From Ignavibacteria bacterium (GTDB taxonomy: Bacteria; Bacteroidota; Ignavibacteria; Tepidaquicellales; OLB5): a stretch of DNA of 59,856 nucleotides. The position numbers were made by a program, and so were the translations under genes. Under the pieces are notes generated by a model, which saw nothing but the letters and a program-made list of their open reading frames with translations, was not told the origin of the DNA and searched no databases. The stretch spans positions 1 through 59,856 of the forward strand of contig JAUQWS010000125.1 of assembly GCA_030835025.1 (NCBI GenBank). Reading direction: 5' to 3'. Positions within the stretch are counted from its first letter, which is position 1. Each line of letters starts with the position of its first letter. Below, one piece after another: positions 532 to 13,636 of this stretch.

Positions 532-2664
532 CTATTTTACAAGGATCATCTTTTTAGTATCTATCATACTGTTATCAACAAAAAGTGAATAGAAATAGAC
601 ACCAGAAGCCAGATTTGTGCCGTCGAAATCATATAAAATAGTCCCCGCATTAAACGGAACTTCGTTAAACAGCATTTCAACTTCCCTGCCTACAACGTCA
701 TATACTTTAAGGGTCACTTTTCCTGCTTTTGGAATAGCAAATTTTATAGTTGTTGTAGGATTGAACGGATTTGGATAATTCTGACCAAGATAATATCCTG
801 AAGGAACTTCATTACTCCATGTAATTCCGCCCACAAGTGTACTATACATTTTCATAATACCTGCACCTGAGCATGCTATCCATGCTGAATCGTATCCTTT
901 GGCATAAACAGCGTTTATTGTTGAAGAACCGCTGTTACGTATCTGCCAATCTGCTCCGCCGTTCGAAGTCCTGAATGTATAGCCTGCTGCTCCTACAACA
1001 TAGCCCGTATTCATACTCGTAAACGAGATTGAGTATTGGCTTGCTGAAACCGGAGTCATTACAGTATCCCAGTTGGTCCCTCCATTTGTTGTCCTTCTCA
1101 AGGTTCCGCCGATTCCTACAAGGTAACCGGAAGTGGCATTCTGCATTTGAATCCAATATAGTGTTGAACTATAGTTTGATACCTGAGCAACCCATGAAGT
1201 GCCGCCATCGGTAGTTTTTCTTACTGCACCGCTGGAACCGATGATGTAGCCGGTATTTGCATCTACCATATCAATCCTGTACAGAGTTGAAGTTATTCCT
1301 GTAGTCTGCAGTGCCCAGTTCAAGCCGCCATTTGTTGTTTTGTAAACTGTCCCCGAAGAACCTGATGCCCATCCGGTATTAGCGTCTATGAAATCAGGGC
1401 AGTACAGAGTGCTTGTTGCCCCTACAAAAGAGACTGAATCCCAGTTTGCACCTCCGTTGGTAGTTTTGAACATTTTACCGGAACTGCCGGAAGCATAACC
1501 GGTGTTTGAATTAATCATCTTCAAACCATAGACTGCATTGGTTATTCCGTTACCGATATCATAGATCCACGTATTGCCGCCATTTGATGAATATAAGAAC
1601 GGCGTTGGGCTTGCTGATCCAACTGCAATTACTTTACCATTCATATTATCACACCAGATATCATTCAGTGTGGATGAATATCCCAGATAGTTATGTGCTG
1701 TCCAATTGGTACCGGCATTGGTTGAAGTATTCAGTAATCCAAATGCACCACCGATTATCATATTGCTGCCGTTTCTGTCAACAGCATAATGAGTTGAAGT
1801 ATAGTACTGAGTTGCATTGAAGGAAACTGAGTCCCATGACACTCCGTCGTTTGTGCTCCTGAAAATATAAAATGAATTACCTACAAGATAATGAGCACCT
1901 GAGCGGTACTCAACACCGTAAAATGTTGAGCTGGGCAGACCGGTTGTTAAAGAATTCCAGCTAAGACCTGCGTTAGATGTTACTCGTACAATTGTTGAAG
2001 AGCCCGCTACCATTCCATTCAGTGAATCCTTAAAGCAAGCATCATACATTGTGAATGATGCACCTGTCGAATCATTGAACCACGTAGTGCCTCCATCATA
2101 ACTGGTTAGTACAATTCCGCCTGAACTAAGCGGACAATAAATTCTATTATTCAGGGCAAAGATGTTGTAAATGGACTGCGTACCCCCGGTTGAAAGTGAT
2201 GTGAAGGTTACACCTGCATTAGTGGTCTTTAGAACAGTTCCACTGGTGCCGCCGATAAATCCGGTATTCGCATCAATAAAGTGGATCCCATACAGCGTCC
2301 CGGTAGAAGACGTACCTATTGAATCCCAGTTCAAACCGCCATTGCTAGTTCTCCAGATATTTCCGGAGCTGCCGGCAACAAGTCCGGTATTCACGTTAAA
2401 AAACCACGCAGTGTATAATGAAATTTGTGTATTGGCACGGATTCCAGCAGCATCAGAGGTAACAAACCAATTTGCACCCCCGTTGGTTGTGCGCATGAAA
2501 GTATTGCCATATCCAACTGCAACCCATTCAGTTGCTGAAAATATCTTCACATAACGAAGTGTATTTCCCTGCGGATAAGGATGTTTCCATTGCCAATTAA
2601 ATTGTGAATAAGTTAGAGCTGAAAGTAAGGTAAAAGCAATAAAGAAGAGTGTAAATCTCTTCAT
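532..2664 (-). CDS. Secreted BNR/Ycf48-like repeat protein with T9SS sorting domain
   Basis: The 710-residue product starts with a signal peptide (residues 1-20). It then carries more than ten BNR-like repeats of the form TTNGGxNW, each followed by a phrase such as DANTGYxxGSSG; this is the pattern of Ycf48-like beta-propellers. The last 85 or so residues are a type A T9SS C-terminal sorting domain (NYPNPFNPTTTIKF, GVYFYSL, ending KKMILVK). It is therefore predicted to cross the outer membrane through T9SS and be anchored or released at the surface. The start has a good Shine-Dalgarno match (AAAGGGGG) a few bases upstream. A terminator follows. Ligand and role cannot be read from the sequence. 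Confidence 0.9.
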   Translation of the reverse strand: MKRFTLFFIAFTLLSALTYSQFNWQWKHPYPQGNTLRYVKIFSATEWVAVGYGNTFMRTTNGGANWFVTSDAAGIRANTQISLYTAWFFNVNTGLVAGSSGNIWRTSNGGLNWDSIGTSSTGTLYGIHFIDANTGFIGGTSGTVLKTTNAGVTFTSLSTGGTQSIYNIFALNNRIYCPLSSGGIVLTSYDGGTTWFNDSTGASFTMYDACFKDSLNGMVAGSSTIVRVTSNAGLSWNSLTTGLPSSTFYGVEYRSGAHYLVGNSFYIFRSTNDGVSWDSVSFNATQYYTSTHYAVDRNGSNMIIGGAFGLLNTSTNAGTNWTAHNYLGYSSTLNDIWCDNMNGKVIAVGSASPTPFLYSSNGGNTWIYDIGNGITNAVYGLKMINSNTGYASGSSGKMFKTTNGGANWDSVSFVGATSTLYCPDFIDANTGWASGSSGTVYKTTNGGLNWALQTTGITSTLYRIDMVDANTGYIIGSSGAVRKTTDGGTSWVAQVSNYSSTLYWIQMQNATSGYLVGIGGTLRRTTNGGTNWDTVMTPVSASQYSISFTSMNTGYVVGAAGYTFRTSNGGADWQIRNSGSSTINAVYAKGYDSAWIACSGAGIMKMYSTLVGGITWSNEVPSGYYLGQNYPNPFNPTTTIKFAIPKAGKVTLKVYDVVGREVEMLFNEVPFNAGTILYDFDGTNLASGVYFYSLFVDNSMIDTKKMILVK

Positions 2665-2816: not shown

Positions 2817-4148
2817 CTACTTCTTTTCAAAGATAAAAGACCCCGAATCACTAACTAGAATACTGACCTTGTCTCCCGGCAGTATTTCACCCCCCAAAAT
2901 CTTCTCAGAAAGCCTGTTTACAATGTGATTTTGGATAGTTCTTTTTAGCGGCCTTGCACCAAAAGTTACATCATACCCAATTTTAGCAAGCCAATCCTTG
3001 GCATCATCAGAGACTTCAAGCAGAGTTTCGCTGTTTTTATACAGCATATTTTTTATCTGGTCAAGCTGAATATCCACAATTTTCCTGAGTTCTTCGGACA
3101 TCAGTGGTTTGAACATTACAACTTCATCAATTCGGTTAAGTATCTCAGGCCTGATTCGCTGGCGAAGAAGCTCAAAGAGACTCTCTTTCAATCTGCCAAT
3201 TATTTCCTCCCTGTTGTCTTCGGTCATATACCGAAGCTCATCCTGGATCAAATGCGAGCCGATATTCGAAGTCATAATAATGATAGTATTCTTGAAATTG
3301 ACTGTCCTGCCCTGTGAATCGGTAAGAATGCCGTCATCTAAAAGCTGGAGCAATATATTAAACACATCCTGATGCGCTTTTTCGATTTCATCCAGCAATA
3401 CTACACTGTAAGGTTTTCTCCTTACGGCTTCGGTCAACTGTCCGCCTTCTTCATATCCAACATAGCCCGGAGGCGCACCAATAAGCCTGCTGACTGAAAA
3501 TTTTTCCATATACTCGCTCATGTCGATCCTGACCATATTATGTTCATCATCAAACAGAAATTCCGCAAGTGCCTTTGCAAGTTCAGTTTTCCCGACACCG
3601 GTTGTACCAAGGAATATGAAGGAACCGATAGGCCGGTTAACATCCTGTAGCCCTGCCCTGCTGCGCCTGATAGCATTTGCAACTGCGTTTATGGCATCAT
3701 CCTGCCCGACAACTCTTTTGTGAAGGTTGACTTCAATGTGGAGGAGCTTCTCGCGCTCACTTTCAAGCATTTTTGTTACAGGTATTCCTGTCCACTTTGC
3801 AACAATTTCGGCAATATCCTCTGAATCAACTTCTTCCTTAAGCATCTTAACTTTCTTTTGAAGTTCGCTAAGTTTCAAAGAGCTGGATTCTATATTCTTC
3901 TGCAGTTCTATTATCTTTCCGTATCTTATTTCGGCAACTTTTCCAAGTTCTCCCTGCCTCTCAAATGTTTCGGCTTCATTTTTCAGCTTTTCGACTTCTT
4001 CTTTCATAGACCGTATCGAAGATATCAGCTCTTTTTCCAGCAGCCAATGAGCCTTAAGCACGTCTCTTTCAGAGGATAACTCGGCAATTTCCTTTTCAAT
4101 TATTTCGAGTCTTTTCCTGGTCGGGTTTTCTTTTTTCTCTTTAGCCAT
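2817..4148 (-). CDS. clpB: ClpB disaggregase, C-terminal half (M domain, NBD2, C domain)
   Basis: The 443-residue product is the second half of the AAA+ disaggregase ClpB. It begins inside the coiled-coil M domain (residues 1-105), continues with the linker [18 protein letters not shown], then NBD2 with Walker A GTTGVGKT (181-188; most ClpB have GPTGVGKT), pore loop GYVGYEEGG (228-236) and Walker [11 protein letters not shown] (249-258), and a normal C-terminal domain with ILNRIDEVV. The N domain and NBD1 lie in a separate gene on the same strand at 9995-11311. Together the halves total 881 residues, about a full-length ClpB, with no motif missing. It has its own ATG start and its own upstream region, so it should be expressed separately. 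Full ClpB works with DnaK to extract proteins from aggregates; that the two chains assemble is inference. Confidence 0.93.
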
Positions 4149-4272
4149 ATCATTCCAAATGTTAAAGTTACGGATTTAATTCCGGATGCGCAGCAGAATT
4201 CGAATATAACCAATTGCGAAATTCTATAAAATGAATAGAATATTAGACACATCTTGTATATATTTGTTTTTT
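4149..4272. promoter_or_regulatory. Divergent promoter region between clpB C-half and glyco operon
   Basis: This 124-bp stretch separates the clpB C-half (minus) from the glycosyltransferase operon (plus). On the minus strand TATATTCG (4208 to 4201) lies 53 bases before the clpB C-half ATG. On the plus strand TATATTTG (4259-4266), a perfect Bacteroidota -7 type box, ends six bases before the ATG at 4273. If it is used, the operon mRNA would be nearly leaderless and an upstream ATG at 4231 would be excluded. No convincing -33 TTG element is seen for either box. Confidence 0.4.
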
Positions 4273-5883
4273 ATGAGCAAGAAAAAGACCAGCGATAATA
4301 CACTGAAGAAATCGGAATCTGTGCTTAATATCCCTTATTCCGAATCAGAAATTGAAAAGAAGTATTCCCGATACTACTGGCTTATGATCCCGGTTCTGGC
4401 AGTACTTAACTACTCGTACAGGATGGTGGCGGTAGGATTTTACCAGGATGATGAAGTGGCGCAGTATATCAATATGCTGAATTTCTGGCATGATCCATGG
4501 GTTATACTTGGAAACGGGCCTAAACCGGGTTACAAGATCTTCATGGTTATACCTGCACTTATCAGCTATGACGCTGTACTGATCTTTAATTCTCTAATTG
4601 CCGCAACAACCGTATATTTAACCTACCTGCTTATAAAGATCTACAAAGTGAATTACGCTATTATTGGTGCACTGCTCCTCGGAACCCAACCGCTTTATGT
4701 TGACCTTTCGTTCAGGTCATATTCAGAAATATTCACTGCACTTTGCCTTGTCAGCTTCCTTATTCTATTTAAGAAAGAGAAATATCTCTATAGTGCTTTG
4801 CTGCTTGGTTATATTTATACTATCAGACAGGAAATCGCACTTTTGATCATAGTCTTTGCAGTGATTTTCGTATTAAGAAAACAGTATCTCAGCGCAGCAC
4901 TGCTGTTTGTATTTCCTGTCCTCTATAATCTACTGGGCTTTATCAAGACAGGTGACATGTTTTTCGTTTTTACGGAAATGAGTTCAGTTGCCGGACTTAA
5001 TTACAAGTCTCAGGGCATCCTGCACTATTTCAAAGTATATATATTCATTGTCGGACCTGTGTGCCTGACTCTCTTCCTGCTTGGTTTTCTCGGTTTCCTG
5101 AACGAAACATCCAAGTTCAAAGAATACCTGAAGAAGTACTTTGAGTTTTACATCATATTTGTATCAATTTTTGTAATTCAAATGCTTACAATGGTTAGTG
5201 ACGGTCCTAACCCGGGAAACTGGAGATACTTGCTGCATATATCGCCCATTTGCGCTTTCTTTGCATCAGCAGGGATTGCCAATCTAACATTGCGGAATTT
5301 CAGGACAACGAATTATGTCATAACTTCCGGTTTAGCCATTGTAGTTCTGCTTTTCCTGTCATATTCAACTGACGGCTTTGTTTTGCTTGATAAACCCGAG
5401 CACATCAAATTCATCTTTGTAGCCATTTTTCTGATCCTAAGCGTTGTGCTTTGGAAAGAACGGAGTTCCGGTTCACTGAAGAATCTGGGTATCGCAGCGG
5501 TCTTGCTGGCTGTTATTCATCTCTATTTTGTAGAGACTAAGAAACTTTCTCCCGAGAATATAACAGTGAAAGAAACTGCAGAATATCTTGACACAATGCC
5601 TGAGGCAAAAGACAGAGTAAAGCTTACTAATCACACTTTTATTCAGTTCTACTCAAAGACTTTCAAAGAAAATACTGTTTCATTCAGAAAGCTTGACCTG
5701 AAAAATCTTGCCGAGGCACCCAAAGGAGCGATAATTATATGGGAATCACATTATGGCTACAGGCCTGAATTCCTGAATGATGTTCAGATCACATCGCTTC
5801 AGGATACAGCAAAATATAAACTATTCAAACAGTTCGTTTCTTCCGATAAGCGTTTTGGGGCTTTCATTTTTGAAAAGCTATGA
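4273..5883 (+). CDS. GT39/ArnT-like polytopic membrane glycosyltransferase
   Basis: The product (536 residues from the ATG at 4273) is a multi-spanning membrane protein with about ten hydrophobic segments. Early in the chain, just after the first membrane segment, it has the acidic motif FYQDDEVAQY, placed like the catalytic Asp/Glu loop of GT-C enzymes of the PMT/ArnT family, which use polyprenyl-phosphate sugars on the periplasmic face. A short soluble C-terminal region follows. An alternative ATG at 4231 adds 14 residues; I prefer 4273 because a -7 type box lies between the two. It is the first gene of a five-gene operon and its TGA overlaps the next ATG (ATGA). Donor and acceptor are unknown; the GT2 and epimerase genes downstream could supply the lipid-linked sugar. 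Confidence 0.75.
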   Translation: MSKKKTSDNTLKKSESVLNIPYSESEIEKKYSRYYWLMIPVLAVLNYSYRMVAVGFYQDDEVAQYINMLNFWHDPWVILGNGPKPGYKIFMVIPALISYDAVLIFNSLIAATTVYLTYLLIKIYKVNYAIIGALLLGTQPLYVDLSFRSYSEIFTALCLVSFLILFKKEKYLYSALLLGYIYTIRQEIALLIIVFAVIFVLRKQYLSAALLFVFPVLYNLLGFIKTGDMFFVFTEMSSVAGLNYKSQGILHYFKVYIFIVGPVCLTLFLLGFLGFLNETSKFKEYLKKYFEFYIIFVSIFVIQMLTMVSDGPNPGNWRYLLHISPICAFFASAGIANLTLRNFRTTNYVITSGLAIVVLLFLSYSTDGFVLLDKPEHIKFIFVAIFLILSVVLWKERSSGSLKNLGIAAVLLAVIHLYFVETKKLSPENITVKETAEYLDTMPEAKDRVKLTNHTFIQFYSKTFKENTVSFRKLDLKNLAEAPKGAIIIWESHYGYRPEFLNDVQITSLQDTAKYKLFKQFVSSDKRFGAFIFEKL

Positions 5884-6590
5884 GGCCGACAAAAGAAAAC
5901 TTTGACGAGTGGAATGAAACAAATGCAATAAAATACGATCTTGAAAAGTTCTACAATCATCCAAACAGGTTATTCAGGTACATTGAAAACAAAAGAATTA
6001 ATACACTGATTGAGTTTGCTGAGATCGGGAAAGACAGTACGGTACTTGATCTCGGCTGCGGCGCAGGGCATGTACTGGAGAAGATCAACTGCGGTATCCT
6101 GACAGGAATTGATGCATCAGAAACACAGGTCAAAAGGGCGTCCGCTAAATTGCGGGATAGCATTGTTCTTATCAGAGCACATGGAGAAAATTTACCCTTT
6201 GAAGACGGACATTTTGACAGGGTAATTTGCAGCGAAGTCCTGGAACATGTACTGGAACCGGGGATTCTGCTGAATGAAATGAACCGGGTACTTAAAGATG
6301 ATGGAATAATTTCTCTATCAATTCCAAATGAAAAATTGATTATTTTGACAAAGAAGATCTTACTCAGAATTGGTTTGAAAAGGATGCTGATACCGAAAGG
6401 AAGCGGGTGGGATCTTGCTGCTAAGAACAATCTGGATGAGTGGCATTTGCATGAATTCAGCCTTAAACTCATTCAGGATTTGGTTGCAGGTCTGTTCCTG
6501 ACCGAAGAACTCAGGAAGATACCTTCTGCGGTTTTCCCTTACAGATATGTATTGAAATTGCGAAAAATAACGAGCAACCAGGGAAATTGA
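5880..6590 (+). CDS. Class I SAM-dependent methyltransferase
   Basis: The 236-residue product has the Methyltransf_11-type fold: motif I VLDLGCGAGH near residue 55-65, an acidic end of beta-2 (GIDAS), and the post-motif region DRVICSEVLEHV and VLKDDGIISLSIPN. The opening FDEWNETNAIKYDLEKFYNH resembles methyltransferases found in polysaccharide and lipid-sugar clusters. It overlaps the preceding gene by four bases (ATGA) and the following gene by four bases, so translation is likely coupled. The substrate is probably a sugar or lipid-linked sugar judging from the neighbours, but this is inference. Confidence 0.85.
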   Translation: MRPTKENFDEWNETNAIKYDLEKFYNHPNRLFRYIENKRINTLIEFAEIGKDSTVLDLGCGAGHVLEKINCGILTGIDASETQVKRASAKLRDSIVLIRAHGENLPFEDGHFDRVICSEVLEHVLEPGILLNEMNRVLKDDGIISLSIPNEKLIILTKKILLRIGLKRMLIPKGSGWDLAAKNNLDEWHLHEFSLKLIQDLVAGLFLTEELRKIPSAVFPYRYVLKLRKITSNQGN

Positions 6591-7519
6591 AAGAGAACTG
6601 CATAATTTACGGTGGAGCAGGATTCATAGGCTCACATATCGCCGAGGACCTTTTGGAAAAAGGGCTCAATGTGACGATATTCGACAAGCAAAATACCTCA
6701 AAGAAGAATATTCAGCATTTAACAGACAAAATTGATTTTATTGAGGGCGATTTCATTAACGAAGTTGACATACAAAAATCTCTCAAAGGCGCAGATTATG
6801 TTGTACACCTTGTAAGTTCAACGCTGCCCGCCAGTTCCAATCTCAATCCCGTATACGATGCCGAATCGAATCTTATCTCATCGTTGAATCTGTTCGATGA
6901 GTGCGTGAAAAACAAGATCAAGAAGGTAATTTTCATTTCATCCGGCGGTACAGTGTACGGCAATCCTGTAAAACTGCCTATCAAAGAAACTCACCCGACT
7001 GAACCGATGAGTTCATATGGGATAATAAAACTAACCATTGAGAAATATCTTGGTTTGTACAAAAATCTAAACGGCCTTGATTACAGAGTATTGAGGTTTT
7101 CAAATCCGTTCGGAGAAAGGCAGAATCCGCTTCTGAGTCAAGGACTCATAGCTCACTTACTTTATAAGATAAAACATGATGAACCTCTTGAGATCTGGGG
7201 TAACGGAAAGATCATCAGGGATTATTTTTATATTAAGGATGGGGCAAGGTCAGTTTACAAGGCAATCACTGACAGATCGCACAACACTATCTACAACATC
7301 AGCAGCGGAAAGGGACTTTCAATAAATCAAATACTGGATAAGTTCAAAAGAGTGCTGAAACTTGATTTTGAAGTTAAATATACTGCTACAAGAAGGTTTG
7401 ACGTTAAATCAAATATCCTTGATAACTCACTGGCCCGCAAAGTTCTTAAATGGTCGCCTGAATACGAATTTAATGATGCATTGAAAAACACATGGAGATA
7501 TATTCTTGATTCAGAATAA
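6587..7519 (+). CDS. NAD-dependent nucleotide-sugar epimerase/dehydratase
   Basis: The 310-residue product is an extended short-chain dehydrogenase. It has the NAD-binding loop GGAGFIGSHI (residues 9-18), an acidic residue after beta-2 (TIFDKQ), the catalytic region SSGGTVYGNP with the YxxxK pair in SSYGIIK, and the substrate region RFSNPFGERQNP. This fits the UDP-glucose 4-epimerase-like group (GalE/WbpP-like). The start is a TTG overlapping the previous stop (TTGA); no in-frame ATG lies close enough to give the GGAGFIG loop its usual position. It likely makes the sugar nucleotide for the glycosyltransferases of this operon. The exact sugar cannot be decided from sequence. Confidence 0.85.
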   Translation: MKENCIIYGGAGFIGSHIAEDLLEKGLNVTIFDKQNTSKKNIQHLTDKIDFIEGDFINEVDIQKSLKGADYVVHLVSSTLPASSNLNPVYDAESNLISSLNLFDECVKNKIKKVIFISSGGTVYGNPVKLPIKETHPTEPMSSYGIIKLTIEKYLGLYKNLNGLDYRVLRFSNPFGERQNPLLSQGLIAHLLYKIKHDEPLEIWGNGKIIRDYFYIKDGARSVYKAITDRSHNTIYNISSGKGLSINQILDKFKRVLKLDFEVKYTATRRFDVKSNILDNSLARKVLKWSPEYEFNDALKNTWRYILDSE

Positions 7520-8237
7520 AGATATACGATTATCGGTATTTTTTCCGGCGTATTATGATGAGAAGAACATAGATAAAGTTGTATGCAAAGCTGTTGAAGT
7601 TCTTGAAGACCTTCAACTGAAAGATTATGAGATTACCATTATTGAGGACGGAAGCCCGGATAGAACGGGCGAAGTTGCTGACAAGCTTGCAGCACGATTC
7701 CCGAAAGTCAGGGTGATCCATCATGAAGTGAACAAGGGATACGGAGCAACATTATGGGAAGGTTTTACATCAGCAAGATTTGAATATGTTTTCTATACAG
7801 ATGGTGACAACCAGTTTGACCTGGAAGAACTCAGGAAGTTTGTTGCTTTGATACCGTTCGGTGATATGGTAGTTGGTTACAGAAAAAAGAAACAGTATTC
7901 GCCATACAGAAAATTTACAAGCTTTGTATATAATTATGTGCTTCGTTTTTACTTTGATATAGATTTCATCGATATTGATTGTGCATTTAAAATAATCAAA
8001 ACAGACCTGTTCAAAAAGATAAAGGTAAACACAAAGGACGCATTCATAGATGCTGAGATCATGATACGGGCCAGCCTTTTAGGGTACTCGTTCACCGAGC
8101 TGGGTGTTAAACACCTTCCGAGGGTTGACGGCGTTTCAACAGCCGCAAGGCCTTCAATTATCTTCAGGACGATCGGTGAAATAATTGATTTCAAAAAAGA
8201 AATAAAGAAAGAACTTCGTGAGCGAAGATCAAAATAA
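7506..8237 (+). CDS. GT2 family glycosyltransferase (polyprenyl-phosphate sugar synthase-like)
   Basis: The 243-residue product is a GT-A fold family 2 enzyme of the DPM1/dolichol-phosphate mannosyltransferase-like type. Visible motifs are [11 protein letters not shown] at the N-terminus, [26 protein letters not shown], and the metal-binding YTDGDNQFD. There is no clear C-terminal membrane anchor. It likely loads a sugar onto a polyprenyl phosphate that the membrane GT39-like enzyme at 4273 then uses; that pairing is inferred from the operon. The likely start is TTG at 7506, overlapping the epimerase gene by 14 bases. It overlaps the histidine kinase start by 20 bases. Confidence 0.85.
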
Positions 8238-9978
8238 ATCAATTAAAGACTCCAGTGATCTCAGGGATATTGTAATAATATTCTCAGTCATCATTTTCAT
8301 TCTTGTCGCAGCATCCATGCTGGATATATTTCAGTGGATGAGAGTTGTAGCCGCAAACCCCGAGGGTTTCAGAATAGTTGAGCTGTTCTTTGTTCTGATG
8401 CTGTTTGGATTTGCCTATTCAATCTTTGCCAGAAGGCGGGCAAAGTCATTCAAAAAGCTCGTGCCGGTATTTACCAAAGAAATTGAAGAATTACATGATA
8501 ACGTGAACAGGTTGCGCAGTACGGTGGACCTTTCACCGGATACTATCACAGTACACAGGGAAGGCAAGCTGTTATTTGTGAACAAGGCCGGTCTTGCCCT
8601 TTTCAGGGCTCAATCCGAAGATCAGCTTTTGGGTTTAACAATGAATGAATTGCTTCATTACTCATACCGTGAAAAAGTCTCAAAAAGACTTGAAGAAATG
8701 GAAAAGTATATGAAGCAGGTTCCGGTGATAGATGTGGCAATAAAAAGACTGGACGGTTCGTATCTTGATGTTAGTGTGGCCTCCACTCCGGTTCTGTATC
8801 ACTCAATGCCCCACGTGATAACAATATTAAGAGATATATCCGAGAGGAAGAGAAATGAAGAGATAAAATCTCAATTAGCCTCGATAGTTCTAAATTCAGT
8901 TGATGCGATTTACGCAATGAGCATGGATGGAATGATACTTAGCTGGAATCCGGGGGCGGAAAACCTGTATGGTTTCAGCGAGAAAGATGCGATAGGAAGA
9001 AATATTTCGATAGTTGTTCCTGATTTTAAGCAGGCAGAGCTTAATCACCTCTTAGGCAAAGTTGCGAAGGGTGAGCGAATTGAATCTTTCGAAACTAAAA
9101 GACAACGAAAAGATAAGAGTACACTTGACGTCTCGCTGACGATATCCCCCATCAGAGATGAATCGGGTATGGTTACAAGGGCTTCAGCAATCTCAAGAGA
9201 TATCACTTTCAAGAAACAGGTAGAAGAAGAATTGAGGAGATACGCAGAGGAACTGGCATTATCAAATGAAGAGCTTTATGTATTTTCTTATGCGGCTTCG
9301 CACGACCTTCAGGAACCATTGCGTTCGATACAGAACTTCCTTGAGACGCTGAACAAGAAGTATAAAAAGAGGCTGGGCCCGGATATGGAAGAACAGATCG
9401 CTTCTGCCGATGACGGTGTCACTAGAATGTACCGGCTGATTACAGATTTTCTTATGTATTCACGTGTGGGAACTGAACGTGCAACCAAAGAAGATATTGA
9501 CTGCAATCTGGCACTCAAAGATGCCATGGCAAACCTTGAAGTAGCTATTAAAGAAAGCAAGGCAAGCATAAAACAATTCACTCTTCCCAGAATTCACGGT
9601 AATTTTGTGCAGATAACCCAGGTATTCCAGAATCTTATCGCAAATGCCATAAAGTACCAGGGCGAAAGCAAACCCTCGATAGATATCTCTGCGGAAAAGA
9701 AAGACGGAATGTGGCTATTTGCTGTGAAAGATAACGGAATTGGAATTGAACAGTGGTTTTCGGAAAGGATATTCATTGTTTTCCAGAAGCTGCACGATCA
9801 CAGAAAATATCCGGGCTCGGGAATTGGATTAGCCCTCTGTAAAAGAGTTATTGAAAAACACGGCGGAAAGATCTGGTTTGAATCCGAAGTAGGCAAGGGA
9901 ACAACGTTCTTCTTTACGCTTCCCATTCTTGAGGAAAAAACAACCAAAACCAAGAAGACGGCAAAAGAAAAATCTTAG
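8218..9978 (+). CDS. Membrane PAS-PAS sensor histidine kinase
   Basis: The 586-residue product starts at a GTG inside the end of the GT2 gene. Two membrane helices (about residues 16-38 and 48-68) enclose only a very short loop, so there is no sizeable periplasmic sensor domain. Two PAS/PAC domains follow (about 98-215 and 216-340; the second has [19 protein letters not shown]). The HisKA domain has its H-box SHDLQEPLR with phospho-acceptor His362, and the HATPase carries DNGIGIE and the G-box GSGIGLAL (533-540). This is the phytochrome/bathy type common in PAS kinases. No response regulator is encoded nearby. Its gene overlap with the glycosylation genes suggests coordinated expression with them. 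The signal is unknown. Confidence 0.9.
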
Positions 9979-9994
9979 CTCATATCCGGCATCT

Positions 9995-11311
9995 TCAGGC
10001 TGAGAGTTCTCTTTTAAGAGCTTCCCTCTCTATCTCTAGCTGTTTTATTTTCTTCTCAACTATATCCAGCTCTTCAGGCATTGAGTCTATTTCAATCCTG
10101 AGCTTGCTTGCCGCTTCATCTATCAAATCAATAGCCTTATCAGGCAAGAACCGGTCTGTAATGTACCGGTGAGATAAGACTGCAGCCGAGACAATTGCCG
10201 AATCGGTTATCCTGACTCCGTGATGAACTTCATACTTCTCCTTTAATCCCCTCAGTATAGATATTGTATCTTCAACCGAAGGTTCATCCACCATGACCGG
10301 CTGGAATCTCCTTTCAAGCGCTGCATCTTTTTCGATATACTTCCGATACTCATCCAGTGTAGTGGCACCAATTGCGTGAAGTTCACCTCTTGCAAGGGCA
10401 GGCTTAAGTATATTTGCTGCATCCATTGCGCCTTCTGATTTGCCGGCTCCAACAAGTGTATGTATTTCATCAATGAACAGTATTATCTCGCCGTCACTCT
10501 GCTTAACTTCATTTATAACAGCTTTAAGCCTTTCTTCAAACTGACCGCGATAGCTTGCACCGGCTATAAGCGCTCCCATATCCAGAGCAACTACGGTTTT
10601 TGACTTCAGGTTTTCAGGCACTTCTCCTTTTACTATCCTGAATGCCAATCCTTCTGCTATTGCCGTTTTTCCAACTCCGGGTTCACCTACCAGTACAGGG
10701 TTATTTTTTGTTCTGCGGGATAGTACCTGTAACACCCTCCTGATCTCTTCGTCTCTTCCTATCACAGGATCCAGTTTTCCCTGCTTCGCCAGCTGATTAA
10801 GGTCCCTCCCGTATTTTTTCAATGATTGATATGTTGATTCCGGGTCTTGGTTTGTCACTCTTTGGTTCCCGCGGATATCTTTTAACGCAGTCAGAACAGA
10901 CTCTTTATTCACTCCCTGTTCATTAAGCAGCTTCCCTGATGCACCTTTATCTTCAGCTATTGCAATCAAAAGATGCTCAATACTTACGTAATCATCTTTC
11001 AGCTGCCCCGCTTCACGAATAGCTTCATCAAGCACTTTCTGAAGGCTGTTGGACAGAAACTGATTTGAAGATGTTGCTGATGACACTTTTGGAAGGCGGT
11101 CAATTAGAGCTGAAGATTTGATCCTCATAAGATCAATCGGAGCACCTATCCTTTTTAACAATGAAGAAGCGAGCCCATCATCTGACTGAATAAGTGCGGC
11201 AAGAAGATGTTCAGGTTCTATCTGCTGATTGGAGTAATTGGCGGCTATTTCGCCGGCCGCCTGCACAGCCTCCTGAGCTTTTATAGTAAATGTATTAAAA
11301 TTAAGTGCCAT
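9995..11311 (-). CDS. clpB: ClpB disaggregase, N-terminal half (N domain, NBD1, start of M domain)
   Basis: The 438-residue product is the first half of ClpB: two Clp_N repeats (residues 1-145), then NBD1 with Walker A GEPGVGKT (209-216), pore loop [11 protein letters not shown] (251-261), Walker B IILFIDE (276-282) and arginine finger ALERRFQP (331-338). It enters the M domain ([17 protein letters not shown]) and stops with TGA directly after ALKRELSA. The chain resumes in the gene at 2817-4148. Between them lie 5.8 kb and five genes on the opposite strand. The stop is 16 bases from the convergent stop of the histidine kinase. Motifs are intact, so I see no sign of decay. Confidence 0.93.
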
Positions 11312-11361: not shown

Positions 11362-11393
11362 AAAAAAAGCCGCTACTTTTAAAAATAGCGGCT
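11362..11393 (-). terminator. Rho-independent terminator of the metalloprotease gene
   Basis: An 8-bp stem AGCCGCTA/TAGCGGCT (11368-11375 with 11386-11393) is followed on the minus strand by a run of seven T residues. It lies about 20 bases after the stop codon of the gene at 11411-13636 and before the start-side region of the clpB N-half. Confidence 0.85.
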
Positions 11394-11410
11394 CTTTAAC
11401 AAAACCGATA

Positions 11411-13636
11411 CTATTTAACCAGCATCATTTTCGATGTCTTTATGTTATTCCCGGCTTCGATTTTGTAAAAGTATATGCCGCTTGGGAAATCCGTTGCGTT
11501 CCAGTCAACTTCAAACTCACCAGCTTTCAGCTCTTCATTCGCAAGTACTGCCACTTCCCTTCCAAGAATATCGTAAACTTTGATATTCACAAAAGCAGAT
11601 TTGGGCAATCCGAATTTTATTTTTGTAACAGGATTAAACGGGTTAGGATAATTCTGATTAACAAAGAACTCCCTTGGTATCTGAGATGAAATGTTCTGAA
11701 TCCCAATTATTCCCCTTCTGAAAGTAATGAGGAAATTCGCAGTCTGGTTAGAATCGAGCAATGAGTTAGACCTGACATTCCACCTGAGCCTGAGCGAATC
11801 ACCTACGTTAACAGCTCCCCATGTGCTTATGATAGAGTCAATTCTGCCCCGGGTAATAGAAAATACAGAATCAGAACCATTATTATTGCTTAAAGCGGAA
11901 TAGATATTCGAATTGTTTGTAGTGCTTAAAAACCACCTGTATTTGATCTCAGGTAAAGTACCGCTTTTTGTATAAACAAAATGAATTCTTGATGTATCTC
12001 CGGAGGAAACTACGGTGCTGTGAAGCTGAGGCGGATCCACAAGATAAAACTGGTTTAAAAGCGGCCTGATCTGAAAGACACTATCGCTTAAGTCCCCGTT
12101 GGATTCATTACCAACCTGATAGACTCTGACTTTTGCCTGAGTAGTGGTCGGGATATACGGGATGATCCAGTTAACACTTCGCAAAGTAGATGAAACATTG
12201 TTTTGCACTGTATTCCAGTTAGAACCGTTGTTAGTTGAGTATTCTACATTAACATTCCCAACATAATCAGTACCCCAGATTATCAAGCCGTTCGTACCGC
12301 CGTTTCTGAATAACTCGCCGCCGTTTGGTGTTGCAACCAGGAAACCTGTTAGATTAGTCAAACATGATGCAGACTCTGCCCTGGTCCTGATAAGTTCAGA
12401 TGGAAGAGGACCAAAATTGAGCGCTATTGAACCGTTCAAATGACAGTAACTCATTATAGTCCCAACTCTTGCAATTGCAGGTCCTGAGTAACATCCTCCT
12501 TCTACTGCATAACAGCTATCTATCGGTCCGCCCGGCCAGGTACAGCTATGTGTGTGGGGTGAACCGAAGTTGTGTCCCGTTTCGTGTGCAACAACCATTG
12601 CATCCCAGGAATAAGTCGGAAGATTATTGAACGTACCGTCAATATCGCTGAATGCATATCCATAGCCGTTGTTTGGGTTTGCGCAAAGCACGTTTACCCA
12701 CGCAATTCCGCCTAATCCGCCTGGGCGGGTTGTTATGTAATGTGCAATAGTTCTGGGAACAGATGTCATATTCCCGTTCCAGTAATTACGGAACTCGTTC
12801 AAAAGAGTGCTTGAAGTTGTTCCGGTATAGGGATCTGCTGAAGTTTCCCATACCCTCAGATATGTTGACTGGAGCTGAACATTAATATCCCTGACATAAA
12901 GTGCTGATACGGGTGCAAGAAGTCTTAGTATATACCTGGCAGCCCCATTAGTGCCTCCAAAGTATGTGAAAGTCTCGAAATCAGTTTCAACTGCAATATT
13001 TGCTTTCAACAATTGCGAAGTGGCGAGATCATTTATATTTCCGCGAAGATCATTTTGCATATCAATGATCTTATTCGGCATTTCAAGTCCGTCCGTTCCG
13101 CACTTGAATTCTGACCTCGTTTTCATCTTGCTGCTGTTATAGAAGATATAATCAGAGTTTAGGTTGTTGCCGTTCAGGCGGGCAAGTACAGAAACTTCAC
13201 TGCCTGATGAGATCAATGCAGAGACTTCATCTTCAAAAAATGTGATCACTACAAGCGGTGCAGTTTTATCCTTAAGATCAGATGTGTAAACAACGAAAGA
13301 ACTGTTCATATCGATCTGTCTATCGCCATTCTGCGTTCCGCCGACAATTCTGGCTCCCGGAGCAAGAAGGTCAAACTTGTCAAGCTCAATATTGACCAAA
13401 TTGCCGTTCAATGGCAACTGAACTGAAATATTCCGGGATTTCAGATTCACGATCTGTTTAACAGTGCCAAAATCGACATTAATTATCTTAGCGTCATCAA
13501 CAGCATTTCTTATTTCAGATGGCAAGGAGCCTGTTTTAACGAAATTCACCGAAAACGGTGAGTATATGCTTTGCTGGGAAAACAAGCTTAATGTGAAAGC
13601 CGCTGCCAGGCAAAAGACGGAGAAAGTAGTTCTCAT
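11411..13636 (-). CDS. Secreted M12B/reprolysin-like metalloprotease with T9SS sorting domain
   Basis: The 741-residue product has a signal peptide (about residues 1-20), a pro-region, and a metzincin catalytic domain with the zinc motif HETGHNFGSPH (His351, Glu352, His355, His361) followed by an IMSYCH Met-turn. Cysteines around the active site could form disulfides. After an Ig-like region (ATPNGGELFRNGG, SVNWIIP) the last 85 residues are a T9SS type A sorting domain with NYPNPFNPVTKIKF, SGIYFYK and MMLVK. It is therefore a surface or secreted zinc endopeptidase. It is the last gene of a reverse-strand run behind a peptide-binding lipoprotein, an NlpC/P60 lipoprotein and a permease, so it may generate peptides taken up by that system (inference). 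Confidence 0.9.
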   Translation of the reverse strand: MRTTFSVFCLAAAFTLSLFSQQSIYSPFSVNFVKTGSLPSEIRNAVDDAKIINVDFGTVKQIVNLKSRNISVQLPLNGNLVNIELDKFDLLAPGARIVGGTQNGDRQIDMNSSFVVYTSDLKDKTAPLVVITFFEDEVSALISSGSEVSVLARLNGNNLNSDYIFYNSSKMKTRSEFKCGTDGLEMPNKIIDMQNDLRGNINDLATSQLLKANIAVETDFETFTYFGGTNGAARYILRLLAPVSALYVRDINVQLQSTYLRVWETSADPYTGTTSSTLLNEFRNYWNGNMTSVPRTIAHYITTRPGGLGGIAWVNVLCANPNNGYGYAFSDIDGTFNNLPTYSWDAMVVAHETGHNFGSPHTHSCTWPGGPIDSCYAVEGGCYSGPAIARVGTIMSYCHLNGSIALNFGPLPSELIRTRAESASCLTNLTGFLVATPNGGELFRNGGTNGLIIWGTDYVGNVNVEYSTNNGSNWNTVQNNVSSTLRSVNWIIPYIPTTTQAKVRVYQVGNESNGDLSDSVFQIRPLLNQFYLVDPPQLHSTVVSSGDTSRIHFVYTKSGTLPEIKYRWFLSTTNNSNIYSALSNNNGSDSVFSITRGRIDSIISTWGAVNVGDSLRLRWNVRSNSLLDSNQTANFLITFRRGIIGIQNISSQIPREFFVNQNYPNPFNPVTKIKFGLPKSAFVNIKVYDILGREVAVLANEELKAGEFEVDWNATDFPSGIYFYKIEAGNNIKTSKMMLVK

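What the first reader, a model, noticed from the sequence alone, without database searches (positions are those of the whole stretch)
2817..11311. clpB is split in the M domain into two intact genes with a five-gene operon between them
The N-terminal half (9995-11311) stops after ALKRELSA and the C-terminal half (2817-4148) begins [17 protein letters not shown]. Aligned with ordinary ClpB, these are adjacent points in the first M-domain helices, so nothing is missing: 438 plus 443 residues equals a full-length protein. Both halves have complete NBDs, own start and stop codons, and no frameshift. A 5.8-kb insert of opposite orientation carries only a glycosylation and sensor operon. If both are translated, this would be a two-chain ClpB whose joint falls in the M-domain helix, the region that in ordinary ClpB contacts DnaK. 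I am not aware of such a natural split being described.
Basis: partly seen in the sequence, partly recalled or inferred. Interest (0 to 1): 0.85.

Follow-up and report, generated by a model that had tools for sequence, protein, structure and literature searches.

The report
Naturally split ClpB disaggregase, two genes
In this bacterium and many relatives, including green sulfur bacteria, the protein-untangling machine ClpB is encoded as two separate half-proteins cut at one fixed spot, an apparently ancient arrangement that resembles a known laboratory construct.

Summary
In detail: clpB-N (9995-11311, 438 aa) and clpB-C (2817-4148, 443 aa) are two intact genes with a five-gene operon between them, and no intact clpB was found in the genome. 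It is neither a recent insertion nor an assembly error. Among 198 genomes of families that carry the split, 169 hold both halves (some partial), 20 list one, 9 neither, and 0 a ClpB over the model cut-off. In nine single-contig genomes the halves lie 20 kb or more apart. All 59 N-halves and 58 C-halves compared break at one place, E. coli ClpB residue 432/433. Both halves are under strong purifying selection and keep their catalytic residues. Most likely they form a two-chain ClpB protomer, held by the L1:L2 coiled coil and the ring interfaces. Trees reject a single clade of all split lineages, so this loop was probably broken at least twice. Two-chain assembly is inferred, not shown. Searches of the held papers found no description.

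The parts
9995..11311 (-). clpB-N: Clp_N domain (2 repeats), NBD1 and M-domain helix L1; 438 aa, own start and stop
2817..4148 (-). clpB-C: M-domain helix L2 onward, NBD2 and D2-small domain; 443 aa, own start and stop
10001..10144 (-). C-terminal helix of clpB-N (residues 390-437 in the AlphaFold2 model), its last part being M-domain helix L1; residue 435 aligns with E. coli E432
3957..4124 (-). first helix of clpB-C (residues 9-64 in the AlphaFold2 model) = M-domain helix L2; K49 aligns with E. coli K476
10664..10687 (-). NBD1 Walker A (GEPGVGKT, residues 209-216)
3585..3608 (-). NBD2 Walker A (GTTGVGKT, residues 181-188)
4231..5883 (+). hydrophobic protein, probably of the membrane (my reading of the sequence), first gene between the halves; no Pfam or NCBIfam family at E 0.001
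   Evidence: present in 6 of 6 family genomes read
5880..6590 (+). SAM-dependent methyltransferase (PF08241), between the halves
6587..7519 (+). NAD-dependent sugar epimerase/dehydratase (PF01370), between the halves
7506..8237 (+). family 2 glycosyltransferase (PF00535), between the halves
8218..9978 (+). PAS-domain sensor histidine kinase, between the halves; convergent with clpB-N, 16 bp apart
11364..11397 (-). terminator-like hairpin (15 pairs) between the upstream gene and clpB-N, so clpB-N may have its own promoter
   Evidence: pattern match only

Best explanation
The window carries a natural two-gene ClpB. Shown: clpB-N encodes the N-domain, NBD1 and the first M-domain helix (L1); clpB-C encodes the rest of the M-domain (from L2) and NBD2. 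In the genomes sampled from the window's order, from twelve further families of its class and from four families taken to be green sulfur bacteria and kin, this pair stands in place of an intact ClpB. Inferred: the two chains pair one to one into a ClpB protomer, with L1 of one chain lying against L2 of the other in the motif-1 coiled coil, and with the NBD1-NBD2 and subunit interfaces of the hexamer doing the rest. Six such pairs form the double ring that threads aggregated proteins with DnaK. Because the cut is at the tip of motif 1, beside the residues (E. coli K431/E432) near motif 2 of the neighbour in the resting ring, I expect the M-domain brake to be looser or differently tuned, while the DnaK dock on motif 2 is untouched.
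For: Same break in 59 N-halves (433-447 aa) and 58 C-halves (438-454 aa) from 18 families (start codons chosen by script). 0 of 198 split-family genomes have a ClpB over the model cut-off; 169 have both halves, 20 list one, 9 neither (tallied by hand from the listings). Walker A and B residues, the NBD1 arginine pair (R334, R335 = T. thermophilus R322/R323), NBD2 pore-loop G228, Y229, G231 and Y232, and E435 (= E432) are invariant; K49 (= K476) and Y76 (= Y503) are kept in at least 90%. dN/dS is about 0.03 for both halves between G333 and G374; in the window's family dN is 0.05-0.15 with synonymous differences of 0.68-0.84. Distances of the two halves correlate beyond rpoBC: partial r 0.54, 0 of 999 permutations as high, 36 genomes. 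A DnaK match in 13 of 13 genomes tested, 12 over the cut-off. Precedent: noncovalently linked NBD1 and NBD2 form a complex when NBD2 is extended by 15 residues (Beinker 2005 as described in PMC2689388, passage seen; [quoted passage not shown]
Against: No protein or expression data. Two-chain assembly was not modelled: only single chains could be folded, and those models have moderate whole-chain confidence (pTM 0.67 and 0.58). Twenty genomes list one half only (12 C-only, 8 N-only), some scored 97-100% complete (C only: G118, G212, G240, G293, G475; N only: G155, G344, G380), which sits badly with strict mutual need. All 20 are drafts, 18 of them with 100 or more contigs, and all ten single-contig split genomes have both halves (G067's C-half with a frame change). 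Nine genomes have neither, two of them with about 20 contigs (G024, G058), so the system is dispensable in places. The engineered T. thermophilus split was at another point (NBD1-M plus NBD2; PMC4239642 passage).
Confidence: 0.85

Rival explanations
1. The halves no longer work together: each forms its own ring, the N-half as a single-ring remodeller or substrate binder, the C-half as a ClpX-like single-ring motor with a coiled coil.
For: Genes are far apart in the single-contig genomes outside the window's family; 20 of 198 genomes list one half only, 12 of them the C-half.
Against: 169 of 198 have both and 9 neither; M-domain switch residues on both chains are conserved; the distances of the two halves correlate beyond rpoBC.
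Confidence: 0.08
2. The two pieces are rejoined after transcription or translation, by trans-splicing RNA or a split intein, into an ordinary full-length ClpB.
For: Nothing is missing at the junction.
Against: N-halves end 1-13 residues after the residue aligned with E432, and C-halves start about 8-15 residues before the invariant arginine of the next helix, leaving no room for intein halves; at E up to 1 the only two Rfam matches near the genes, both below threshold, are a microRNA and a ribosomal leader, no intron (window only); each half has its own start and stop.
Confidence: 0.02
3. A decaying or misassembled clpB.
For: Two other genomes do show simple frame changes (G175 in an intact-type clpB, G067 in its C-half).
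Against: Same break and same neighbourhood in 6 of 6 family genomes of three genera, same break in 18 families, strong purifying selection.
Confidence: 0.01
4. Evolutionary rival: one fission in the common ancestor of green sulfur bacteria and the window's class, followed by return to an intact gene (re-fusion or gene transfer) in the intact families, rather than two or more fissions at the same loop.
For: The break is at the same place in all groups; the splits inside the window's class can be one clade in both trees (AU p 0.346 for ClpB; 0.253 for rpoB+rpoC).
Against: One clade of all split lineages is rejected (AU p 0.0206 ClpB; 0.00265 rpoB+rpoC); return would have to join distant genes or import intact ones several times.
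Confidence: 0.3

Closest known systems
ClpB / Hsp104 (Hsp100 disaggregases), e.g. E. coli and T. thermophilus ClpB
   Same: Same domains in the same order, catalytic and switch residues kept; the ClpB model is the best NCBIfam match of each half and ClpB chains are the best PDB sequence matches.
   Different: Two polypeptides from two genes instead of one of about 850 residues; the L1-L2 loop is replaced by free ends.
Engineered split T. thermophilus ClpB (Beinker et al. 2005; known here from passages in PMC2689388 and PMC4239642 and reference lists, abstract recalled)
   Same: NBD1 and NBD2 modules made as separate chains that re-associate.
   Different: Laboratory construct, cut as NBD1-M plus NBD2, whereas nature cuts before most of the M-domain, which stays on the NBD2 chain.
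ClpB lacking motif 1 (delta E410-Y455; PMC4023160 passages)
   Same: Motif 1 altered; that variant keeps substantial disaggregation activity, so the region tolerates change.
   Different: Here motif 1 is complete in sequence but interrupted at its tip; the deletion is hyperactive and toxic, the natural pair is conserved.

Membership tests
ClpB (Hsp100 disaggregase) | N-terminal Clp_N double repeat | tested here: met
   PF02861, 2 stretches in clpB-N
ClpB (Hsp100 disaggregase) | NBD1 with Walker A/B and paired trans-acting arginines | tested here: met
   G209, P211-T216, D281, E282, R334, R335 invariant in 59 N-halves; aligned with T. thermophilus R322/R323
ClpB (Hsp100 disaggregase) | coiled-coil M-domain with motifs 1 and 2, distinguishing ClpB from ClpC/ClpA | tested here: met
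   alignment to E. coli ClpB runs on across the two chains, 432 to 433; present but shared between chains
ClpB (Hsp100 disaggregase) | NBD2 with Walker A/B, GYVGYE pore loop and D2-small domain | tested here: met
   PF07724, PF10431; invariant columns in 58 C-halves
ClpB (Hsp100 disaggregase) | one polypeptide; curated whole-protein score of TIGR03346 (1232.1 bits) | tested here: not met
   693.3 and 624.7 bits apart; two genes with opposite-strand genes between them
ClpB (Hsp100 disaggregase) | partner DnaK in the genome | tested here: met
   TIGR02350 at E 1e-100 or better in 13 of 13 genomes, 12 over cut-off, incl. the window's genome; G034 partial
ClpB (Hsp100 disaggregase) | ATP-dependent hexamer with DnaK-dependent disaggregation | not testable with these tools
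   needs biochemistry
ClpB (Hsp100 disaggregase) | no ClpP-binding loop | not tested
   not examined

The most novel reading that the evidence does not exclude
ClpB has been cut independently at least twice, in green sulfur bacteria and in the Ignavibacteria/Kapabacteria side, at the same loop at the tip of M-domain motif 1, giving an obligate two-chain disaggregase whose two motor rings are encoded by separate, separately regulated genes and whose M-domain brake carries free chain ends.
Probability: 0.5. Interest if true: 0.85.

Novelty: new variant of a known kind. Interest (0 to 1): 0.74.

Why it matters
ClpB is a textbook machine in which the coupling of two ATPase rings through one chain, and the M-domain switch, are much studied. 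Bacterial lineages that run it as two chains would show that the covalent link between rings is dispensable in living cells. They would point to the tip of motif 1 as a natural place to cut, and offer separately expressible, separately mutable rings for testing how the rings talk and how DnaK lifts the brake. It may also show why the split is easily overlooked: each half falls below the ClpB cut-off, and a 2007 survey (PMC1887533, passages seen) names only one Chlorobi species as containing the protein.

Tried and rejected
Rejected: assembly error or recent insertion; pseudogene; hidden intact ClpB in the 95%-complete genome; trans-splicing or inteins. A CIRCE operator upstream of the halves was sought in a script and not found: the best matches, in 5 of 117 upstream regions, have 6 of 18 mismatches. 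No shared promoter was established; the sigma-70-type scan gave 19 sites against 21.0 expected. A single clade of all split lineages was tested and rejected by AU tests, with the caution that LG+G4 was used and some rows have long branches or odd composition.

Rows dropped. rpoB was found in 60 of 60 genomes; 3 with broken rpoB (G002, G065, G192) were not fetched. Of 57 rows, two (G296, G255) were mis-parsed and dropped; some rows lack rpoC. G175 was dropped from the ClpB tree; G096 (C-half cut by a stop) and G067 were left out from the start. Loop lengths were measured in 61 of 100 loci scanned. The distance correlation used 36 genomes with both halves and rpoBC.

Limits of the counts. The both/one/neither tallies were made by hand (sums checked for the first 124). 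Thresholds were 1e-158, so fragments may be missed there; G127 and G155 were not rechecked at a laxer threshold, and the listing was cut off. G022, counted as neither, shows a 231-aa C-terminal fragment. The phylum search scored only two candidates per genome and listed no halves for f50 genomes in which one search then found them, so it was not used for counts. Of its 67 f37 genomes, 65 were rechecked (60, 5 more); G519, G522 and the f50 genome G525 (13% contamination) were not. Against my reading: Gupta and Lorenzini report a ClpB in C. phaeobacteroides, whereas 0 of 65 f37 genomes rechecked have one over the cut-off; I could not tell whether that species is in the sample.

My early note recalled E432A as derepressed; the paper says it is repressed and Y503D is hyperactive, and the report follows the paper. 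Paper searches showed listings only; passages were read in four papers, none whole.
Full report
What is there. The window holds two complete genes on the minus strand, clpB-N (9995-11311, 438 aa) and clpB-C (2817-4148, 443 aa), separated by 5.8 kb with five plus-strand genes. These encode a hydrophobic protein without a named family, a methyltransferase, a sugar epimerase, a family 2 glycosyltransferase and a PAS histidine kinase. clpB-N has the Clp_N repeats, NBD1 and its lid; clpB-C has NBD2 and the D2-small domain. By phmmer the N-half ends at E. coli ClpB residue 432 and the C-half begins at 433. The window's genome (136 contigs, 95% complete) shows no other ClpB; the other two-ring Clp match is an 834-aa frame that lacks the middle of the ClpB model, hence of ClpC type, and there is one weak match.

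It is conserved, not an accident. In the window's family (15 genomes, 3 genera) no genome has a ClpB over the model cut-off, and in 11 of 15 both halves lie on one contig and strand. Of six further family genomes read across the locus, six keep the same five genes in the same opposite orientation between the halves; one (G007) has extra ORFs beside clpB-N. In the order (44 genomes, 19 genera) 0 are over the cut-off: 29 have both halves (two of them cut by a contig end), 2 have both with one only in part, 4 N only, 3 C only, 6 neither, one of which shows a C-terminal fragment. In the class, 294 genomes sampled, 145 are over the cut-off. Twelve further families that show the split hold 80 of the 294: 67 both, 3 both with one broken or in pieces, 2 N only, 5 C only, 3 neither, 0 over the cut-off. 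The remaining 25 belong to families with no split gene of this kind: contig-end fragments, no ClpB found, or the frame change of G175. In 60 genomes of family f37, 55 have both, 2 N only, 3 C only, 0 over the cut-off. Fourteen more of f35, f37, f50 and f62 give 13 both and 1 C only. Together: 198 genomes, 169 both, 20 one half (12 C, 8 N), 9 neither, 0 over the cut-off. All 20 half-only genomes are drafts, 18 with 100 or more contigs, but several are scored 97-100% complete, so true loss of one half is not excluded. All ten single-contig split genomes have both halves, G067 with a frame change in the C-half.

Who they are. Among 80 titled GTDB loci that encode relatives of clpB-N (the best 80 of more), ten end at the same point: records labelled Ignavibacteria (3), Kapabacteria or Kapaibacterium (3), Bacterium HR21, Chlorobaculum sp. 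24CR, a bin labelled Melioribacter and one unassigned bacterium. 65 are full length, 4 run off the contig and 1 stops elsewhere. Single-contig lengths of G374 and G297 equal what I recall for Chlorobaculum tepidum TLS and Chloroherpeton thalassium, so f35/f37 are taken to be green sulfur bacteria. I also recall, without having checked, that databases list the two C. tepidum halves as ClpB 1 and ClpB 2.

The halves are neighbours only in the window's family. In nine single-contig genomes with both halves intact (G036, G076, G226, G297, G333, G341, G350, G374, G424) they lie from about 20 kb to over 1 Mb apart. The closest pairs I saw outside the family are 10.8 kb (G180) and 11.6 kb (G052) apart; in most drafts they sit on different contigs. 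So the operon in this window is better read as one family's arrangement than as a wedge that split a gene.

Where the cut is. Full-length proteins were taken for 59 N-halves (433-447 aa, median 438) and 58 C-halves (438-454 aa, median 443) from 18 families; start codons were chosen by script. N-halves end 1-13 residues after the glutamate that aligns with E. coli E432, which is invariant. C-halves begin about 8-15 residues before an arginine that is invariant near the start of the next helix. AlphaFold2 on alignments A1 and A2 gives the C-half (mean pLDDT 83.3, pTM 0.67) a helix from residue 9 to 64 after eight non-helical, low-confidence residues, and the N-half (80.3, pTM 0.58) a helix 390-437 reaching its end. 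Foldseek matches both to ClpB and ClpC structures. The cut is therefore the loop between helices L1 and L2. In intact ClpBs this same loop is where lengths differ: of 61 measured (of 100 loci scanned), 45 have the usual spacing, 8 are three residues shorter, 1 two shorter and 7 seven to nine longer. The seven long ones carry the same RE(L/I) extension as split N-halves.

What that means for the mechanism. In E. coli ClpB, E432 and Y503 lie at opposite ends of the M-domain coiled coil; E432A is repressed and Y503D hyperactive. Motif 1 contacts motif 2 of the neighbour in the resting state, supported by a K431C-S499C cross-link. DnaK binds the tip of motif 2. Deleting motif 1 (E410-Y455) leaves substantial disaggregation but makes the protein hyperactive and toxic (PMC4023160, passages). 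The natural cut is thus at the brake contact and away from the DnaK dock. E435 of clpB-N (= E432) is invariant; K49 (= K476) and Y76 (= Y503) of clpB-C are kept in at least 90% of rows (numbering carried over from the alignments), so the switch is probably still used. Holding of the two chains by L1 against L2 and by the ring interfaces is inference, backed by the re-association of separate T. thermophilus NBD1 and NBD2 pieces (PMC2689388 passage).

Selection and co-inheritance. Between G333 and G374 dN/dS is about 0.03 for each half (0.009/0.29). In the window's family dN is 0.05-0.15 with synonymous differences of 0.68-0.84, near saturation. Distances of N and C halves correlate beyond rpoB+rpoC distance (partial r 0.54, 0 of 999 permutations, 36 genomes). 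A DnaK match is present in 13 of 13 genomes tested, including four counted as lacking both halves, one of them with a partial match.

How often it happened. A ClpB tree of 78 rows rejects one clade of all 58 split rows (AU p 0.0206), and an rpoB+rpoC tree of 55 genomes rejects it too (p 0.00265). The splits within the window's class can be one clade (p 0.346; p 0.253), although neither best tree shows one. The simplest reading is at least two fissions at one loop; one ancient fission with several returns to an intact gene is the rival. G175 is not an example: it is an intact-type gene with a frame change.

Literature. Searches for split ClpB, ClpB with split and Ignavibacteri*, gene fission, Chlorobium and Chlorobaculum tepidum, two separate genes and clpB1/clpB2 gave no account of it (listings). 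Gupta and Lorenzini 2007 (PMC1887533, passages) call C. [quoted passage not shown] That fits the halves having been overlooked, but it also says that one Chlorobi species has a ClpB; none was over the cut-off in 65 f37 genomes. Subscription journals are largely not held, so absence from print is not shown.

Verdict. A real, conserved, probably recurrent natural two-gene ClpB: a new variant of a known kind. The genomic case is strong; the two-chain machine itself is untested.

Noticed in passing
L202 (G175), reverse strand, start of M-domain helix L1: A single-contig genome of family f10 has an intact-type clpB with a frame change just before the L1-L2 loop, giving two overlapping frames; either a sequencing error or a fresh, independent break.
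   Followed up: partly
L209 (G067): The C-half of a single-contig genome changes frame near residue 275 of the query; possibly a sequencing error.
   Followed up: partly
L051, L059, L063, L233, L234, L242, L243: Seven of 61 intact ClpBs measured have the L1-L2 loop seven to nine residues longer, with the same RE(L/I) extension as split N-halves: a possible halfway stage to fission.
   Followed up: partly
G118, G212, G293 (C-half only) and G058 (neither), family f14: Genomes scored 97-100% complete that list the C-half without the N-half, or neither; possible loss of ClpB-N or of ClpB altogether.
   Followed up: no
G135, G141, G155, G189: A further Clp-type frame of 884-933 aa scoring 742-761 bits against the ClpB model exists beside the split halves in some f7 and f15 genomes; its kind was not determined.
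   Followed up: no
G180, G052 and genus g164 (e.g. G341, G409, G439, G498): Outside the window's family some genomes keep the halves 11-34 kb apart, which may be a trace of ancestral closeness.
   Followed up: no
L133:1951-3658 (G007): Two extra ORFs lie between clpB-N and the histidine kinase in one genome, so the conserved block does accept insertions.
   Followed up: no
window 532-2664 and 11411-13636: Genes flanking both clpB halves encode large proteins with YPNPFNP-type C-terminal domains (recalled as type IX secretion signals).
   Followed up: no
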